Positions 1-7,455 of a stretch of DNA of 64,000 bases are shown here, in pieces. The notes under the pieces were generated by a model. That model searched no databases. It worked only from the letters and a program-made list of their open reading frames with translations, and was not told the origin of the DNA. Made by a program: the position numbers and the translations under genes. Source of the stretch: Nocardioides sp. B-3 (GTDB taxonomy: Bacteria; Actinomycetota; Actinomycetes; Propionibacteriales; Nocardioidaceae); NCBI RefSeq assembly GCF_024703895.1, contig NZ_CP087968.1, positions 2,542,001 through 2,606,000 of the forward strand, given 5' to 3'. Numbering within the stretch: position 1 is the stretch's first letter; each line of letters opens with the position of its first letter.

Positions 1-185
1 GCAGTGGGCGCTCCGCGACAACCGCGTCACGAGCGCCGTGATCGGTGCCAGCAGTGTCGAGCAGCTCGACACCAACCTCGGCGCGCCTCGACGGGCCGCC
101 GCTCACCGACGCGGAGCTGGCCGAGATCGACACGTTCGCGGTCGAGTCCGGCATCAACCTGTGGGCGAAGGCGACCGAGGAGTAA
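1..185 (+). CDS. Aldo/keto reductase, C-terminal end (partial)
   Basis: This is the last ~60 codons of an aldo/keto reductase whose 5' part lies outside the window. The frame reads WALRD..VTSAVIGASSVEQLDTNL and ends GINLWAKATEE before TAA at 183-185. The IGASSVEQL segment is the C-terminal NADPH-binding motif of the family, and the GINLWA ending resembles the L-glyceraldehyde-3-phosphate reductase (YghZ) subgroup. An extra C near position 88 breaks the frame after NLGA; removing it restores LDGPPLTDAELAEID. The likely role is cytosolic NADPH-dependent reduction of small aldehydes or ketones; the substrate cannot be told from this fragment. Confidence 0.75.
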
Positions 186-228
186 AGCCATTCGCCTCCG
201 TCGGTCGCAGCGGGGATGATGGCTCGTT

Positions 229-1918
229 GTGGGTCACGTTGATGTCGCCGGAGTGCGTTACGAGCTGCCAGACGGGCGGGTGCTGCTCGACGACGTCAGC
301 TTCCGGGTCGGGGACGGCGCGAAGGTCGCGCTCGTCGGCGCCAACGGGGGCCGGCAAGACGACGTTGCTGCGGATCATCACGGGCGACCTCACACCGCAC
401 GCCGGTGCGGTGACCCGCAGCGGCGGGCTCGGCGTGATGCGCCAGTTCGTCGGCCACGGTGGCGGTGACGAGACCGTCGCCGACCTGCTGCTCAGCGTCG
501 CGCCCGAGGCGGTCCCGCGCCGCGGCCGCCAAGGTCGACGCCTGCGAGCTGACGCTGATGGACACCGACGACGAGAAGGCGCAGATGGCCTACGCCGTCG
601 CGCTCTCCGACTATGCCGACGCGGGCGGCTACGAGGTCGAGGTGACGTGGGACGTGTGCACCACCGTCGCGATGGCGATGCCGTTCGACCGCGCGAAGCA
701 CCGCCTCCTCACCACGCTCTCCGGCGGCGAGCAGAAGCGACTCGTCTCGGAATACCTCCTGCGCGGTCCGGACCAGGTGCTGCTGCTCGACGAGCCCGAC
801 AACTACCTCGACGTGCCCGGCAAGATCTGGCTCGAGGAACGCATCCGCGAGTCGACGAAGACCATCCTGTTCATCAGCCACGACCGCGAGCTGCTCAACA
901 ACACCGCGACCCGCATCGTGACCGTCGAGCTGGGCAGCGCCGGCAACCGGGTGTGGACCCACCCCGGCAACTTCGCCAGCTACCACGAGGCCCGCACCGA
1001 CCGGTTCGCCCGCTTCGAGGAGCTGCGCCGCCGCTGGGACGAGGAGCACGCCAAGCTCAAGGCGCTGGTGCTGCGGCTCAAGATCAAGGCGGAGTACAAC
1101 GACGGCATGTCCTCGCAGTACCGCGCGTCCCAGACCCGACTGCGCAAGTTCGAGGAGGCCGGCCCGCCGACCGAGCAGCCGCGCGAGCAGCAGGTCACGA
1201 TGCGGCTCAAGGGCGGTCGCACCGGCAAGCGCGCGGTGGTGTGCGAGGACCTCGAGCTCACCGGACTGATGAAGCCCTTCGACCTCGAGGTCTGGTACGG
1301 CGAACGCGTGGCCGTCCTCGGCAGCAACGGCTCCGGCAAGTCGCACTTCCTGCGGCTGCTGGCCGCCGGTGGCTCCGACCCCGACGTGGAGCACCGTCCC
1401 GTCGGCGATCCGCCCAACGCCGTACCCCACACGGGGCGGGCGAAGCTCGGCGCGCGCGTGCGACCGGGCTGGTTCGTGCAGACGCACGAGCACCCCGAGC
1501 TGGTGGGTCGCACCCTGCTGGAGATCCTGCATCGCGGCGACGGATCGCCCGACGGTCGCAGGGGCATGGGCCGGGAACAGGCGGCGCGCGTGCTCGACCG
1601 CTACGAGCTCGCGCACGCGGGGAGCAGACCTTCGAGTCGCTCAGCGGTGGCCAGCAGGCCCGCTTCCAGATCCTGCTGCTCGAGCTGTCCGGCGCGACGC
1701 TGCTCCTGCTGGACGAGCCGACCGACAACCTCGACGTACAAAGTGCGGAGGCGCTGGAGGCCGGGCTCGAGGCCTTCGACGGGACCGTCCCGGCGGTCAC
1801 CCACGACCGATGGTTCGCCCGCGGCTTCGACCGATTCCTCGTGTACGGCGCCGACGGTGCCGTCTACGAGTCCGACGGTCCGGTCTGGGACGAGGGGCGT
1901 GTGGTGCGGTCGCGCTGA
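229..1918 (+). CDS. ABC-F family ATP-binding protein (frameshifted)
   Basis: A soluble protein with two ATPase modules and no membrane segment, about 563 residues, as in ABC-F proteins that act on the ribosome (translation factors or antibiotic-resistance proteins). The first module has Walker A (about 340-360), signature LSGGEQKRL (about 718-745) and Walker B LLLDEPDNYLDV. A charged inter-domain linker follows, then a second module with GSNGSGKS (about 1318), LSGGQQARF (about 1638) and LLLLDEPTDNLDV. Three indels break the frame: an extra G in the first Walker A near 350, an extra C near 512, and a lost G near 1620. The GTG start at 229 gives a normal N-terminus. Whether it is a housekeeping or resistance ABC-F is not decidable here. 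Confidence 0.85.
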
Positions 1919-1931
1919 GGTCGGGGGAGGC

Positions 1932-2828
1932 TCAGCCTGCTTCGCGCGCCCGGCCACTCTCCGGGGCCGTCAGGAGCTCGAGTGCGACTCGCTCATCGAG
2001 CTCACACGACTTCCTGTGAGACCTCACGAGGCGGACGGCCTTCATGTCGGGCGAGACGAGGAAGACGTCCGGGGAGATCGGGTAGGGCTCCTCGCTCCGG
2101 GTCTTGTGAGCCAACCACGACATCGTGACCGCGGTGTGGATGACATCCTCATCGACCGGCACGTGCACCCAGAGCTCGAACTTGGTCGGAACCGCAACCA
2201 GCACTCCGTGGATCGGGAAGTCGGTGCCCGGGACGCGTCGCAGCACCTCGGGCAGCACCACCACCCGGGCGGCGCCGTGTGCGTCGGGGCTGTCGAGGAA
2301 CTCGACCCATGAGCCCCTCACGCGTGGATCGACTCGGCGTCGGGTGTGGCGTGGCAGGGGCAGCGCGGCAAGGTTGGTGAGCGCTGTTTCATAGGCCTCG
2401 TCCCGGTCGCCGACGAGGTCGAGCTCGCCGAACTCATGGCTGGCCCCTTTGCCCTGCGCTGCAAGCACGGCAAAGAGCCCGGGCAGTGGCTCGAGGGCGT
2501 CGTAGGTGAGGAGCTGATCTGCACGCTCCGTGGGCCACAGCTTCACGCGGAGGTCGGCGGTCGCTGGTCGCTGGTCCGGCCGCATGGCGAGGAGGGTGGA
2601 GAGCTGGTCCCGCACCGCCCGTGGCCATCGCCTGCGCGGCATCAGGCTCAGCGTGCGCGCCGGGTTGTCGAGCCCCAGCTCACGACCGTCCGCAAGGGCG
2701 AGCGCGACGCCGTCCAGCACGCTCGAGCTGTGACCGAGCTCGGTGAGGACGCGTTGGGCCTCGTTGAGCAGCCAGCGGGTGTCAGTGGCGTTGAGGCCGG
2801 GGAGCTTCGGTTCGTCGATGTGTGTCAT
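1932..2828 (-). CDS. Hypothetical protein
   Basis: An intact reading frame of about 298 residues starting at ATG 2828 (MTHIDEPKLPGLN); a TTG four codons upstream is an alternative start. No signal peptide or membrane segment is seen. The N-terminal half is basic and Arg-rich. The C-terminal half alternates short hydrophobic strands (VLVAVPTKFELWVHVPV, DVFLVSPDMKAVRLV), suggesting a mixed alpha/beta fold. It faintly recalls YtpQ/DUF1444 proteins, but this is not established. Its stop lies 14 bp from that of the ABC-F gene, so the two converge. It sits beside a small toxin-antitoxin-like pair and may be accessory. Confidence 0.6.
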   Translation of the reverse strand: MTHIDEPKLPGLNATDTRWLLNEAQRVLTELGHSSSVLDGVALALADGRELGLDNPARTLSLMPRRRWPRAVRDQLSTLLAMRPDQRPATADLRVKLWPTERADQLLTYDALEPLPGLFAVLAAQGKGASHEFGELDLVGDRDEAYETALTNLAALPLPRHTRRRVDPRVRGSWVEFLDSPDAHGAARVVVLPEVLRRVPGTDFPIHGVLVAVPTKFELWVHVPVDEDVIHTAVTMSWLAHKTRSEEPYPISPDVFLVSPDMKAVRLVRSHRKSCELDERVALELLTAPESGRAREAG

Positions 2829-3046
2829 GTCCCGATGCAAACAGGATTCGGGGCGCGGTGTCGGGGGTCATCCACAGGCTGCGCATTGCGAGCCACTCTC
2901 CGTCCACAGCCCACCCGAAACTGGGGCTTGTCCCCGGTGGTGATGGGTTCGACAAGGAGTGTCCGAGGGCGCTCGTAACTTCGGTGCATGACCTCAACCA
3001 CCACGGCATTGATCAAAGCAGCGATGCAAGTTACCTTGGAAGGGCG

Positions 3047-3274
3047 ATGAGCGGTCCGATCATCGTGGTGTCTGCGCTCAAGCACGGACTGACCAAGGAG
3101 GAGATCCTTCATGCCTATCGCCACCCTGTCCGTGTCTGGGACCTCGGCGATGGTTTCACCATGATCGTCGGGCCGAATCAGGCCGCGATCTTCCCGGAGG
3201 TCGGGTATGTCGACGGCGGAGAGACCTTCGTCATCGTTCACGCCATGAAGGCCCGCGAGAAGTTCCTGAGGTGA
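3047..3274 (+). CDS. Small BrnT-like putative toxin of a TA pair
   Basis: Encodes 75 residues. The start at ATG 3047 is supported by GGAAGG about 7 nt upstream. The order of elements resembles small BrnT/DUF4258-type RNase toxins: an early HG, helix KEEILHAYRHP, strands VRVWDLGDGFTMIVGP, then a terminal VIVHAMKAREKF with conserved His, Arg and Lys. It has no signal peptide. The next gene starts at or within a few bases of its stop and encodes a helix-turn-helix-like protein, the usual layout of a type II toxin-antitoxin operon. Base composition is visibly less GC-rich than the neighbours, consistent with acquisition. The toxin role is inferred from size, order and weak similarity. Confidence 0.6.
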   Translation: MSGPIIVVSALKHGLTKEEILHAYRHPVRVWDLGDGFTMIVGPNQAAIFPEVGYVDGGETFVIVHAMKAREKFLR

Positions 3275-3279
3275 CGAAC

Positions 3280-3549
3280 ATGCCGCGCACAGTTGACGAG
3301 ATCCTGAAGCACGCCGAAGAGCTGACGCTTCGGTTCGAGTCCTATGAGCCAGATCCCGATCACGAGCTCGATGCCAAGGCCGTGGCCTTGCTGCGAGATG
3401 CGGTGGTCGAACGCTCCAAGGCGGAGCGCCACCTTGTTGAGGCGGTGCGCATCGCACGCGAGGCCGGAATGACTCGGTCTGCGATCGGGTCGCTGGTCGG
3501 CACCAGCGGTGAGGCTGCTCGGCAGCGATACGGCAGCAAGGTCGCCTGA
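3280..3549 (+). CDS. Putative antitoxin with HTH-like C-terminus
   Basis: About 89 residues from ATG 3280, chosen because GAGG lies 8 nt upstream; GTG 3271, overlapping the previous stop, is an alternative start. The N-terminal half is acidic and helical (DEILKHAEELTLRFESYEPDPDHE). The C-terminal half, HLVEAVRIAREAGMTRSAIG followed by SLVGTSGEAARQRYG, resembles the short HTH of many actinobacterial regulators. Partner gene order and translational coupling fit an antitoxin that neutralises the upstream toxin and represses the operon. Note that the toxin-like gene comes first, as in brnTA/higBA-type loci. Confidence 0.6.
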   Translation: MPRTVDEILKHAEELTLRFESYEPDPDHELDAKAVALLRDAVVERSKAERHLVEAVRIAREAGMTRSAIGSLVGTSGEAARQRYGSKVA

Positions 3550-3593
3550 CGGGCGGCTCGAGTGACGAGCGCGCTGGCCCCTAGGGTCCCGCG

Positions 3594-3975
3594 TCAGGCA
3601 CCGCTGCCGTAGGGGCGGGTGATGATCTCGAGACTGTGCCCGTCGGGGTCCTCCCAGTAGACGCCGCGCCCGCCGTCACCGTGGTTGATCGCGTCGGGGT
3701 GCTGGTGGAAGGGGTCGGCCCAGTAGGCGATCCCGCGCTGCTGGATGCGCCCGAAGATCTCGTCGAACTCGTCCTCGCTGACGAGGAAGGCGTAGTGCTG
3801 CGGGTGCGGTGCCGGGTCCTCCAGCACGTCGAGGCTCACGCCGTTGGCCAGCTGGACCACCGGGGAAGGGGCCGTAGCGTGCCGGCTCCGCCAGACCGAG
3901 CACCTCGACGAGGTGCCGCGCGGTCTCGTGCTGGTCGCGGGCGTGGACGATCGTGTGGTTGAGGTCGATGGCCAT
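3594..3975 (-). CDS. VOC family protein (frameshifted)
   Basis: A single vicinal-oxygen-chelate (glyoxalase/bleomycin-resistance fold) protein of about 126 residues. It opens MAIDLNHTIVHARD, with the metal-ligand-type His, and closes GRGVYWEDPDGHSLEIITRPYG, where YWEDPDGHxLEI is the family's C-terminal metal-binding strand with the Glu ligand. AGGAGG lies about 8 nt upstream of the ATG at 3975. One extra base in a C run near 3860 shifts the frame after YGPFP; removing it restores VVQLANGVSLDVLED. The substrate is unknown. It precedes, on the opposite side, the acyl-CoA dehydrogenase cluster on the same strand. Confidence 0.8.
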
Positions 3976-4008
3976 GGCTTTGTCCTCCTGCGACCCAGCC
4001 TGCCACAG

Positions 4009-5160
4009 TCACACGAAGGCGCTGATGCCCGTTTCCGCACGGCCGATCAACAGCTTCTGGATCTGCGACGTGCCCTCGTAGAGCGTCATCACCCGGGCGT
4101 CGCGGAGGTACTTCGCGGCGGGGTAGTCGTCGACGTAGCCCGAACCGCCGTGGATCTGGATGGCGAGGTTGGCGGCGCGGACGGCAGCCTCGGACGCGAA
4201 CAGCTTCGCCTTGGAGGCGGCCGTTCCGAAGGGTTCGCCGCGGTCGACGAGGTCGGCGCAGCGCCACACGAGGAGCCTCGCGGCGTCGGCGTCGAGGGAG
4301 ATGTCGGCGATCATGTCCTGCACCAGCTGGAAGGCGGCGATCGGCTTGCCGAACTGGGTGCGGCTGGTGGCGTAGTCGACCGACGTCTCGAGACAGCCCT
4401 GCACGATGCCGACGCAGCCGGCGGCCACCGCGAGGCGCCCCTTGTCCAGCGTGCTCATCGCGATATTGAACCCGCGACCGACCTCGCCGAGCACGGCCGA
4501 GGAGGGCACCCGCACGTCGGAGAGGAACAGCTCCGCGGTGGCCCGGCCGCGCAGGCCGAGCTTGCCCTTGATCTCGCGCGCCTCGAAGCCGGGGGTGTCC
4601 GTCGGCACCGGGAACGCCGTGACGCCGCGCGGGCCGTCGTCGCTGGTGCGCGCGAAGATCAGCGCGACGTCGGCCCAGGTGCCGTTGGTGATGAAGAGCT
4701 TCTGCCCGTTGAGCACCCAGTCGTCACCGTCGCGGGTCGCGCGCGACGTCAGGTTGCCCGCGTCCGATCCGGTGTCCGGCTCGGTCAGCCCGAAGCAGCC
4801 GAGCTTGCTGGCCGTCGCGAGCTGCGGCAGCCACTCCTGCTTCTGCTCCTCGGAGCCGTTGAACAGGATCGACTTCCCGACGAGGCCGCTGCTGACCGAC
4901 ACGATCCCGCGCAGCGCCGAGTCGGCCCGCCCGAGCTCCTCCATCGCCAGCGCATAGGTGACGTAGTCGCCGCCGAGACCGCCGTACTCCTCCGGGATGG
5001 TGAGCCCGAAGAACCCGATCTCGGCCATCTTCGGCACGATCGCCGGGTCGACCGACTCGTCGCGGTCCCACTGCGTGCGGTGCGGCACGGCTTCCCGGTC
5101 GAGGAAGTCGCGGGCCAGCGTCCGGAAGGCCTGCTGCTCGTCGCTCAGCGAGAGGTCCAT
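4009..5160 (-). CDS. Acyl-CoA dehydrogenase
   Basis: An intact 383-residue flavoenzyme that oxidises acyl-CoA thioesters to trans-2-enoyl-CoA, passing electrons to ETF. FAD-binding and active-site motifs are seen in order: GLTEPDTGSDAG (about residues 125-136), FITNGTWADV, and the C-terminal MTLYEGTSQIQKLLIGR, whose Glu is the catalytic base in short/medium-chain enzymes. The length is normal. The ATG at 5160 overlaps the upstream stop (TGATG), so it is translationally coupled to the preceding acyl-CoA dehydrogenase. Three such genes in a row suggest a dedicated acyl-CoA or branched/sterol side-chain degradation module; the substrate is not determinable. Confidence 0.92.
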   Translation of the reverse strand: MDLSLSDEQQAFRTLARDFLDREAVPHRTQWDRDESVDPAIVPKMAEIGFFGLTIPEEYGGLGGDYVTYALAMEELGRADSALRGIVSVSSGLVGKSILFNGSEEQKQEWLPQLATASKLGCFGLTEPDTGSDAGNLTSRATRDGDDWVLNGQKLFITNGTWADVALIFARTSDDGPRGVTAFPVPTDTPGFEAREIKGKLGLRGRATAELFLSDVRVPSSAVLGEVGRGFNIAMSTLDKGRLAVAAGCVGIVQGCLETSVDYATSRTQFGKPIAAFQLVQDMIADISLDADAARLLVWRCADLVDRGEPFGTAASKAKLFASEAAVRAANLAIQIHGGSGYVDDYPAAKYLRDARVMTLYEGTSQIQKLLIGRAETGISAFV

Positions 5161-6300
5161 CAGGCGAGCGCGTCGATCTCGCCGTGGTCGGCCACCCGGG
5201 CGGCCAGCCCGGTGAGGTGATGCTGCGCCCCACCGAGCCATTGCTCGAGTACGGCGAGGTGAGCCGTCCCGACGCCGACGGAGTATTCCGCCGTCATGGC
5301 GATCCCGCCGTGGAGCTGGATCGCGTCCTGCCCGATGTGCTTGCCGGCCCGGGCGATCTGCAGCCCGACCCGGTCGGCGGCGTCGGCGATGTCCGCCCGG
5401 CTGCCTGAGGCGACCACCATCGTCGCCCAGTCGACCGGGCTGTGGGCGAGCTCGAGCGAGACGTACATGTCGGCGGCCCGGAAGGTGAGGGCCCGGAAGG
5501 TGTTGAGGGTGACGCCGAACTGCTTGCGGCTCATGAGGTAGTTGTTGGTGGCGGCCACCCGGGCCTGCATCACGCCGAGCGCCCGGTTGGCGCCCATGAT
5601 CCGGGTGATGTCGCTGATGGTCGCGATGGTCGACGACAGGTCGAGCCCGGGCTCGCCCAGTGGCACCGCGGGTGTTTCGGCGAGCTCGACGCGCGCCGCG
5701 CGACTGCCGTCGAAGACGGCGTAGTCAGTGCGAGTCGCGTCCGCTCCGTCGACCACGAAGAGCCCCGTCCCGCCGGACGGCAGGGACGCGCTCACCACGA
5801 TGTGGTCGGCCCGGGCGCCGTTGGGCACCGGGTCGCGGACGCCGGTGAGCGTCCACGCATCACCATCCGAGGCGGCCGTCACGCCCTCCGCCGCCGAGGA
5901 CCAGCGACCGCCGGGGGAGGTGTCGGCGGCAGCCAGCACGATCTCGCCGGCCGCGAGCCGGCCCAGCAGGTCGGCACGCTGCTCGGATGATCCCGCGACG
6001 GCAACCAGTCCGCCGGCATGCACCACGGAGGCGAGGAACGGCTCTGGCGCCAGCACCCGGCCGAGCTCCCGGCAGACCAGCCCGATCTCCACCGGGCCGG
6101 CCTCGACGCCGCCGTCGTCCTCGGTGAACGGCAGACCGAGCACCCCCATCTCGGCCGGGGCGGGCCCACTGCGTCTCGTCGAACCCGGGAGCGTCGGCCA
6201 CGGCCCGGCGCCGGTTCTCGAACTCGCCGTACGCCTTGGTCGCGAGTCCGCGGACGGCCTCGCGCAGTGCCTTCTGCTCGTCGTCGTAGGTGAAGTCCAT
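5160..6300 (-). CDS. Acyl-CoA dehydrogenase, partner subunit type (frameshifted)
   Basis: About 380 residues starting MDFTYDDEQKALREAV at ATG 6300. It has an acyl-CoA dehydrogenase fold but divergent flavin motifs; the C-terminal catalytic segment reads QLHGGIAMTAEYSVG instead of the usual YEGTxQIQ, so the canonical catalytic Glu is absent. Such proteins in Actinobacteria often pair with an adjacent larger dehydrogenase to make alpha2beta2 enzymes (FadE pairs in steroid catabolism). An extra base near 6165 breaks the frame after DETQWAR; the frame resumes at EMGVLGLPF. It lies 1 bp from the upstream dehydrogenase gene and overlaps the downstream one, supporting co-translation. Confidence 0.85.
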
Positions 6301-6301
6301 G

Positions 6302-7455
<1,154 letters not shown>

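What the first reader, a model, noticed from the sequence alone, without database searches (positions are those of the whole stretch)
3047..3549. Putative two-gene toxin-antitoxin module
A 75-residue BrnT/DUF4258-like protein is followed at once by an ~89-residue protein with an acidic N-terminus and HTH-like C-terminus. Both have ribosome-binding sites, both are intact, and the local GC is lower than around them. The pair is flanked by a hypothetical gene and a VOC gene, an accessory-looking patch. No named TA family is clearly matched, so this may be an undescribed or poorly studied type.
Basis: partly seen in the sequence, partly recalled or inferred. Interest (0 to 1): 0.6.

Follow-up and report, generated by a model that had tools for sequence, protein, structure and literature searches.

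The report
RelS-RelI toxin-antitoxin pair with operator
Two tiny neighbouring genes look like a poison-and-antidote pair of a kind first described in 2026, and comparing them with relatives suggests a DNA switch by which the antidote would control both genes.

Summary
The pair is real: a 75-residue toxin-like gene (3047-3274) overlaps by 4 bp an antitoxin-like gene (89 residues from ATG 3280). It is not an undescribed type. Each protein's best solved relative is one partner of the same complex, RelS-RelI (PDB 9SDC; PMC13284704, 2026), and the catalytic K, H, H, R are kept. RelI stands next to the toxin in 69 of 77 distinct loci (three others are cut by contig ends), on chromosomes, plasmids and Gordonia phages; both genes are under purifying selection.

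What looks new is regulatory. The RelSI paper saw no inverted repeats and no evidence of DNA binding. Across the family I find a palindrome on the -10 box near the toxin start. Its sequence follows the RelI recognition helix (CAAGn4CTTG in 40 of 42 loci of one type, 1 of 27 of the other) and is absent before 36 of 36 held-out toxin relatives lacking RelI. Toxin mRNA looks leaderless in 45 of 69 loci; relI has a strong Shine-Dalgarno. Inferred: RelI represses its own operon. Nothing was measured here: no toxicity, binding or start site. The window copy has two odd residues and a 9-nt spacing.

The parts
3009..3014 (+). -35-like hexamer TTGATC, 17 nt before the -10; aligned with TTGACC in most close relatives
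   Evidence: the generic sigma-70 scan called no promoter here
3027..3038 (+). Proposed RelI operator CAAGTTACCTTG (imperfect palindrome), overlapping the -10
   Evidence: only CAAGn4CTTG in the window (0.19 expected); CAAGNTANCTTGG occurs once in the whole genome, here; conserved in relatives
3032..3037 (+). -10-like TACCTT (TANNNT), 9 nt before the ATG
3047..3274 (+). relS-like toxin gene, 75 aa; K12, H13, H65, R70, K72 align with RelS K9, H10, H64, R69, K71
3268..3274 (+). Shine-Dalgarno GAGGTGA of the antitoxin gene, overlapping the toxin stop
3271..3549 (+). relI-like antitoxin gene, 92 aa from GTG 3271, most likely 89 aa from ATG 3280; C-terminal HTH-like part with TSGEAARQRYG

Best explanation
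A type II toxin-antitoxin operon of the RelS-RelI kind. Gene A is a RelE/BrnT-fold ribonuclease toxin that most likely stops translation by cutting the 3' end of 16S rRNA in the anti-Shine-Dalgarno region, as M. tuberculosis RelS does (inferred from homology). Gene B is the RelI antitoxin: its N-terminal helix covers the toxin's active site and its long helix dimerises (inferred). In addition, the RelI helix-turn-helix most likely binds the palindrome CAAGTTACCTTG on the -10 box and represses the operon (inferred from comparative sequence). In most relatives the toxin is probably made from a leaderless mRNA and the antitoxin from a strong Shine-Dalgarno, which would favour antitoxin excess. 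The module moves between actinobacteria, plasmids and temperate phages.
For: Best PDB relatives are the two partners of 9SDC: single proteins E 4.4e-5 and 3.3e-5; family profiles, built without that species, 9.6e-26 and 3.6e-25. Toxin H13, H65, R70 are invariant in 17 of 17 members and K12 is kept in 16 of 17. RelI sits next to the toxin in 69 of 77 distinct loci. dN/dS 0.23 and 0.20. AlphaFold of A: pLDDT 88.5, VIA-align Z 7.7 (2.9 A, 75 aligned) to a Salmonella toxin and Z 5.8 (2.6 A, 67 aligned) to BrnT. Operator: CAAGn4CTTG in 40 of 42 GEAARQ-type loci, 1 of 27 other-type loci, 5 of 6026 control windows; the second motif in 23 of 27 other-type, 0 of 42 GEAARQ-type, 34 of 6026 controls. Held-out loci: 4 of 4, 6 of 11, no swaps, 0 of 36 for toxin relatives without RelI. 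The RelI profile also hits the N-terminal domain of ClpC2 (8ADA, E 3.8e-4); ClpC2 represses its own gene through CGTCAAC-n5-GTTGACG, 1-2 nt before its ORF, shown by EMSA (PMC10030653, passages).
Against: No experiment on this copy. The toxin has P50 where the other 16 aligned members have L, I, V or F (the G705 ortholog has C), and the antitoxin R69 (92-aa numbering) where the other 18 aligned members have W: the copy could be weakened, or the base calls wrong. The RelSI authors saw no inverted repeats upstream of the M. tuberculosis operon and argue that the HTH region contacts the toxin (PMC13284704 Discussion, part 1). The ClpC2 authors place its DNA contact in the C-terminal domain, which RelI lacks, and give the RelI-like N-terminal domain a dimerisation role; yet R57A in that domain derepressed clpC2 4.6-fold against 2.0-fold for the C-terminal double mutant. 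A palindrome score that ignores shared sequence was weak: 19 of 69 loci at p<=0.05. Held-out other-type loci met the fixed motif in only 6 of 11. In the window the ATG is 9, not 6-7, nt after the -10. Foldseek had no hit at E<=0.001 for either model, and VIA-align also gives unrelated DDB1 chains Z 5.0-5.2.
Confidence: 0.77

Rival explanations
1. A BrnT-BrnA module proper, with an mRNA-cutting toxin and a ribbon-helix-helix antitoxin.
For: Same gene order and toxin superfamily; phage annotators call many relatives 'BrnT-like toxin'; at E<=1 Pfam BrnT matches 5 of 17 members.
Against: The partner matches RelI, not a ribbon-helix-helix protein. Three other BrnT-like genes exist in the same genome; the one opened (L153) has a different small gene just upstream.
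Confidence: 0.07
2. The window copy is a decaying remnant: the toxin is weakened and only the antitoxin matters.
For: P50 and R69 at positions otherwise conserved. Relatives show decay: L025 has a toxin without its N-terminus beside an intact RelI; L003/L026 and L027 are broken.
Against: Both frames open; dN/dS 0.23 and 0.20 against the G705 ortholog; operator and Shine-Dalgarno kept.
Confidence: 0.12
3. The palindrome is the site of another regulator, for example ClpC2 itself, not of RelI.
For: Other-type palindromes (GTCAA..TTGAC) look like the published ClpC2 operator, and the ClpC2 authors put DNA contact in a domain that RelI lacks.
Against: The palindrome sequence goes with the RelI helix type at 90, 70, 60 and 50% clustering (34 of 36 against 1 of 25 representatives at 90%; 7 of 7 against 0 of 7 at 50%) and is missing before 36 of 36 held-out toxin relatives without RelI. 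The GEAARQ-type site CAAGTTAnCTTG differs from the ClpC2 site, and CAAGNTANCTTGG occurs once per genome, at relS, in four genomes checked.
Confidence: 0.16
4. The conserved upstream block is only a promoter, its symmetry accidental.
For: It contains a -10 (TANNNT) in most loci; -35 TTGACC lies 17 nt upstream in close relatives.
Against: Conserved bases extend beyond the -10 on both sides. In 23 centre-aligned other-type sites four outer positions pair in 23 of 23 and a fifth in 22 of 23, with T-A/A-T and C-G/A-T variants, though the motif used to pick them demands most of this. A second copy stands 15, 27 or 28 bp away in 11 loci. In one family group the site is some 20 nt further upstream and still conserved.
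Confidence: 0.1

Closest known systems
RelS-RelI (Rv2663-Rv2664), PDB 9SDC, PMC13284704
   Same: Both partners homologous; toxin first; lengths 75/89 against 78/85 aa; catalytic K, H, H, R conserved; long central helix in the model of B.
   Different: Clearly divergent sequence; longer antitoxin N-terminus; a conserved palindromic operator here, reported not seen there; chemistry not measured here.
BrnT-BrnA (Brucella abortus; 3U97 toxin)
   Same: Toxin fold class and gene order.
   Different: Antitoxin unrelated by sequence search; BrnT cuts mRNA without the ribosome according to PMC13284704 (passages).
ClpC2 (Rv2667), autorepressor of actinobacteria
   Same: N-terminal dimer domain related to RelI (E 3.8e-4); palindromic operator next to a start described as leaderless, sometimes duplicated.
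   Different: Not an antitoxin; has a ClpC1-like C-terminal domain to which its authors assign DNA contact; operator bases differ from the window's.
PHROGs phrog_17063 (toxin) and phrog_18428 (unknown)
   Same: Window proteins match them at E 9.4e-16 and 1.4e-18.
   Different: Phage families; phrog_18428 has no assigned function, here proposed to be RelI.

Membership tests
RelS-RelI | Toxin homologous to RelS with catalytic K9, H10, H64, R69 | tested here: met
   alignment: K12, H13, H65, R70; profile E 9.6e-26
RelS-RelI | Adjacent downstream antitoxin homologous to RelI | tested here: met
   4-bp overlap
RelS-RelI | RelI fold: N-terminal helix, elongated central helix, short C-terminal helices | tested here: inconclusive
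   AlphaFold, pLDDT 78.4, pTM 0.48: helices 5-20, 26-29, 32-61, 66-85 in 89-aa numbering; the fold library stops at 8 April 2026 and did not return 9SDC
RelS-RelI | Acidic RelI residues D8 and D12 pairing with the toxin active site | tested here: inconclusive
   aligned residues are T19 and E23, 92-aa numbering; other acidic residues are nearby
RelS-RelI | Toxicity neutralised by the partner; 16S cleavage in the anti-SD | not testable with these tools
   GGATCACCTCCTTTCT is present at 2 places in the genome, which is no test
BrnT-BrnA | Curated BrnT model met by the toxin | tested here: not met
   window protein: no Pfam or NCBIfam match at E<=10; 5 of 17 relatives match Pfam BrnT at E<=1
BrnT-BrnA | Ribbon-helix-helix BrnA antitoxin | tested here: not met
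   no BrnA or RHH match for gene B; RelI match instead
ClpC2-type autorepressor operator | Palindrome on the -10, next to the ORF | tested here: met
   compared with passages of PMC10030653
ClpC2-type autorepressor operator | Direct binding of the protein to the palindrome | not testable with these tools

The most novel reading that the evidence does not exclude
RelSI is a self-locking translation switch. The toxin destroys the anti-Shine-Dalgarno, yet its own mRNA is leaderless and does not need it, whereas the antitoxin depends on a strong Shine-Dalgarno. Because the RelI HTH is used both to hold the toxin and to bind the -10 palindrome, free toxin would strip RelI from the operator, switch on the operon and then selectively starve the cell of new antitoxin.
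Probability: 0.18. Interest if true: 0.8.

Novelty: new member of a known kind. Interest (0 to 1): 0.5.

Why it matters
RelSI has one paper in the library searched, which left its transcriptional control open. A family-wide operator that goes with the RelI recognition helix gives a concrete, cheap test of autoregulation. If RelI, which has only the N-terminal part of ClpC2, binds a ClpC2-like site, the published placing of ClpC2's DNA contact would also need a second look. The leaderless-toxin, SD-antitoxin layout bears on the disputed idea that anti-SD-cutting toxins favour leaderless mRNAs. The pair on temperate Gordonia phages, within one gene of the integrase in the three opened with the closest toxins, suggests a role in lysogeny or superinfection defence.

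Tried and rejected
Palindrome search without a shared motif: weak, mean score 6.1 in 69 loci against 5.1 in 1375 control windows; replaced by motif tests. The motifs were defined on the discovery loci, so one search is partly circular. A held-out set was then announced in a note before fetching. It is not fully independent: it was drawn from the same hit lists and holds near copies of discovery loci (e.g. L110 and L111 of L052, L107 of L019). Five held-out other-type loci failed the fixed motif (L113, L114, L118, L129, L138); several show related palindromes by eye, not counted.

Of the 8 discovery loci without RelI, 3 do carry a palindrome (L048, L008, L080), but all three contigs end right after the toxin; the other 5 have none. 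The one other-type locus with CAAGn4CTTG, L092, has GTSGEAVRQRY, a GEAARQ-like helix missed by the pattern; it is left as counted.

In 97 order genomes CAAGTTANCTTGG matched 7; in four of these (G090, G120, G126, G141; forms with A or G) it lies elsewhere than at a listed relS.

The leaderless signature is not special to RelSI: 16 of 36 held-out toxin relatives without RelI, and 7 of 15 with it, have TANNNT 6-7 nt before a start.

Reading 'SYLG' before the toxin as an N-terminal extension: rejected, because variants such as L022 carry an in-frame TAA in the palindrome.

Foldseek against PDB gave no hit at E<=0.001 for either model; VIA-align for gene B listed ten chains, top Z 5.8, read as helical look-alikes.

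The viral-contig scan found no relatives. I did not follow up whether Waterfoul gp86, whose leaky expression kept M. smegmatis from being transformed (PMC9339283, passages), is of the RelS type; the two phage searches with toxin sequences did not return it.

Full report
What is there. Gene A (3047-3274, 75 aa) and gene B (GTG 3271 or ATG 3280 to 3549, 92 or 89 aa) are open, overlap by GTGA and lie in a dip of GC (0.628 against about 0.70). In the ten relatives L015-L024 the same 4-bp GTG overlap is present. Against the ortholog in genome G705, which matches window 184-3555 at 87.6% DNA identity, dN/dS (NG86) is about 0.23 (A) and 0.20 (B). Another same-genus genome, G735, has matches on both sides (2032-2909 and 4008-7022) but a different 3.3-kb stretch between them and no RelS or RelI profile hit in the 13 kb taken: the site is variable.

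Where it comes from. The genome (one 4.48-Mb contig, 61% complete) is in the same family as G068, whose contig C25 has the length and matched sequence of a contig of a named Nocardioidaceae MAG (L003 and L026), so Nocardioidaceae by inference. Full-length relatives of the toxin at 69-83% identity sit in Ornithinimicrobium, Tessaracoccus, Arachnia, Propionibacterium, Micrococcus, Brevibacterium and Propioniciclava. At E<=0.01, plasmid records with A number 8 and with B 6 of 72,556 (an Actinomyces oris plasmid and Rhodococcus plasmids among them); phage records with A 30 and with B 27 of 50,697, all Gordonia phages, some entered twice. In the three opened phages with the closest toxins (Attis, Madeline, Wrigley) the toxin is next to the integrase or one gene away; in AlumE, a more distant type, three genes lie between. 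Such identity across families, and phage and plasmid carriage, point to horizontal transfer.

What it is. Pfam, NCBIfam and PADLOC name neither window protein (one NCBIfam line at E 0.061 for B, far under its cut-off, is noise). PHROGs matches A to a 'toxin' family (9.4e-16) and B to an unknown family (1.4e-18). In the PDB the best match of A is RelS (9sdc_C, E 4.4e-5) and of B RelI (9sdc_A, E 3.3e-5). Profiles of 17 and 19 relatives raise these to 9.6e-26 and 3.6e-25; the toxin profile matches nothing else at E<=10, the antitoxin profile next matches ClpC2, Rv2667 (3.8e-4). RelS-RelI is described in PMC13284704; I read the outline with abstract, section 22, part 1 of sections 23 and 27, and found passages. 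There RelS cuts 16S rRNA between C1520 and U1521; K9A, H10A and H64A severely affect toxicity; RelI's first helix covers the active site. The corresponding K12, H13, H65 and R70 are present here; H13, H65 and R70 are invariant in 17 of 17 members. AlphaFold models agree in outline.

Pairing. Toxin profile searches hit 75 of 293 order genomes and 70 of 394 class genomes (these hits include other BrnT-like proteins). The best places plus earlier loci gave 93 loci and, after dropping identical duplicates and copies without a readable N-terminal catalytic motif, 77 distinct toxin loci; 69 of 77 have a RelI next door. Of the 8 without, L048, L008 and L080 end at a contig edge right after the toxin; L010 and L013 are followed by a gene of another kind; L005, L012 and L093 show none in the flank held. 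Among 58 mostly lower-scoring further loci (7 dropped), 15 have RelI and 36 do not; these 36 are probably other BrnT-like systems.

Operator. Aligning upstream DNA of the window and 12 close relatives, otherwise mostly unalike, shows TTGACC-17-TAnCTT inside CAAGTTAnCTTGG, with few deviations in the -35. In 69 loci with RelI, CAAGn4CTTG stands 12-100 nt before the toxin's catalytic codon in 40 of 42 loci whose RelI has GEAARQ in the recognition helix and in 1 of 27 others; the second form G(T/A)(C/A)A(A/G)-n5-9-(C/T)T(G/T)(T/A)C in 23 of 27 others and 0 of 42; controls 5 and 34 of 6026 windows. By representatives of toxin clusters at 50% identity: 7 of 7 and 7 of 7, no swap. Held-out loci, with the motif criteria fixed in a note beforehand, gave 4 of 4, 6 of 11, no swap, and 0 of 36 for toxin relatives without RelI (limits of that set under Tried and rejected). 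So the palindrome goes with the antitoxin rather than the toxin. In 97 order genomes the form CAAGTTACCTTGG occurred in three, each time just upstream of relS. ClpC2 represses its own gene through CGTCAAC-n5-GTTGACG next to its start (PMC10030653, passages). Against a simple transfer of that result, its authors place DNA contact in the C-terminal domain (helix 174-189), which RelI lacks, and describe the RelI-like N-terminal domain as the dimerisation domain; mutating that domain (R57A) nevertheless relieved repression more (4.6-fold against 2.0-fold). My reading, an inference, is that the shared domain also reads the DNA. It disagrees with the RelSI paper's statement that no inverted repeats were seen in M. 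tuberculosis, whose upstream DNA I did not examine.

Translation layout. TANNNT lies exactly 6 nt (36 loci) or 7 nt (9 loci) before an in-frame toxin start in 45 of 69 loci, against a null of 0.16 and 0.12 loci for these spacings. Cortes et al. (PMC3898074, passages) place TANNNT 7-12 bp upstream of start sites and report 32 of 37 toxin-antitoxin pairs leaderless in M. tuberculosis, so a leaderless first gene is usual; here the first gene is the toxin. relI has the stronger Shine-Dalgarno in 66 of 67 loci by best candidate start and 56 of 67 by first ATG; relS is near random (median -4.8 by its best candidate against -4.1 for random 18-mers), though the worst relI candidate is no better (-3.2). 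The window copy is an exception in spacing (9 nt) and has an SD-like GGAAGGG close to its ATG (-7.9); G705 shares the GCG-ATG form.

Caveats. All functional steps are inferred. P50 in the toxin and R69 in the antitoxin are unusual; the G705 ortholog has C50 and W. The assembly may be error-prone: the ABC transporter-like gene at 38-2312 is split over frames, while G705 has one 562-aa frame in that place.

Literature check. Searches for 'BrnT-like toxin'; 'BrnT', 'Gordonia phage', 'toxin'; 'BrnT', 'BrnA', 'toxin-antitoxin'; 'leaderless', 'toxin-antitoxin', 'anti-Shine-Dalgarno'; 'Rv2663', 'Rv2664'; five words on leaderless, palindrome and autoregulation; and 'RelS-RelI' showed no title or abstract about a RelI operator; three of these listings were capped (30 of 57, 15 of 33, 10 of 14 papers shown). 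The main text of the RelSI paper holds neither 'leaderless' nor 'operator'. PMC12274833 (passages) notes that the link from anti-SD removal to leaderless translation has not been supported by follow-up.

Noticed in passing
G000:C1 342244-342477, 345230-345463, 362067-362300 (L105, L106, L153): Three near-identical BrnT-like genes in the same genome within about 20 kb; the copy opened (L153) has a 94-aa gene ending in EAIRRALAGSAA that overlaps its start, probably a ribbon-helix-helix antitoxin encoded first.
   Followed up: partly
L133-L136, L139-L141: Seven BrnT-like toxins without RelI share another upstream palindrome, TTTCGTATTACGA, beside a start that is leaderless-like in most of them: probably the operator of a different antitoxin family.
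   Followed up: no
L028, L029, L035, L033: RelI of Gordonia phages and of a Rhodococcus plasmid carries a long Lys/Ala-rich C-terminal tail like those of DNA-binding proteins; the window copy lacks it.
   Followed up: no
L025, L022: One Arachnia isolate has an intact pair and a second copy whose toxin lost its catalytic N-terminus beside an intact RelI.
   Followed up: no
window 38-2312 and 3594-4040: An ABC transporter-like gene and the VOC-like gene are split over frames; G705 has one 562-aa frame where the former lies and no match to window 3556-4005. The assembly (61% complete) may have many indel errors.
   Followed up: partly
G090:C1 3769141-3769154 and 4069733-4069746: Perfect palindrome CCAAGTTAACTTGG at two places in a same-genus genome without a toxin hit; owner unknown.
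   Followed up: no
L165 (Mycobacterium phage prophi104-2): A RelS-like gene annotated BrnT-like toxin, with an annotated antitoxin next to it, in a prophage of M. abscessus (49% identity to the Rhodococcus ruber plasmid toxin).
   Followed up: no
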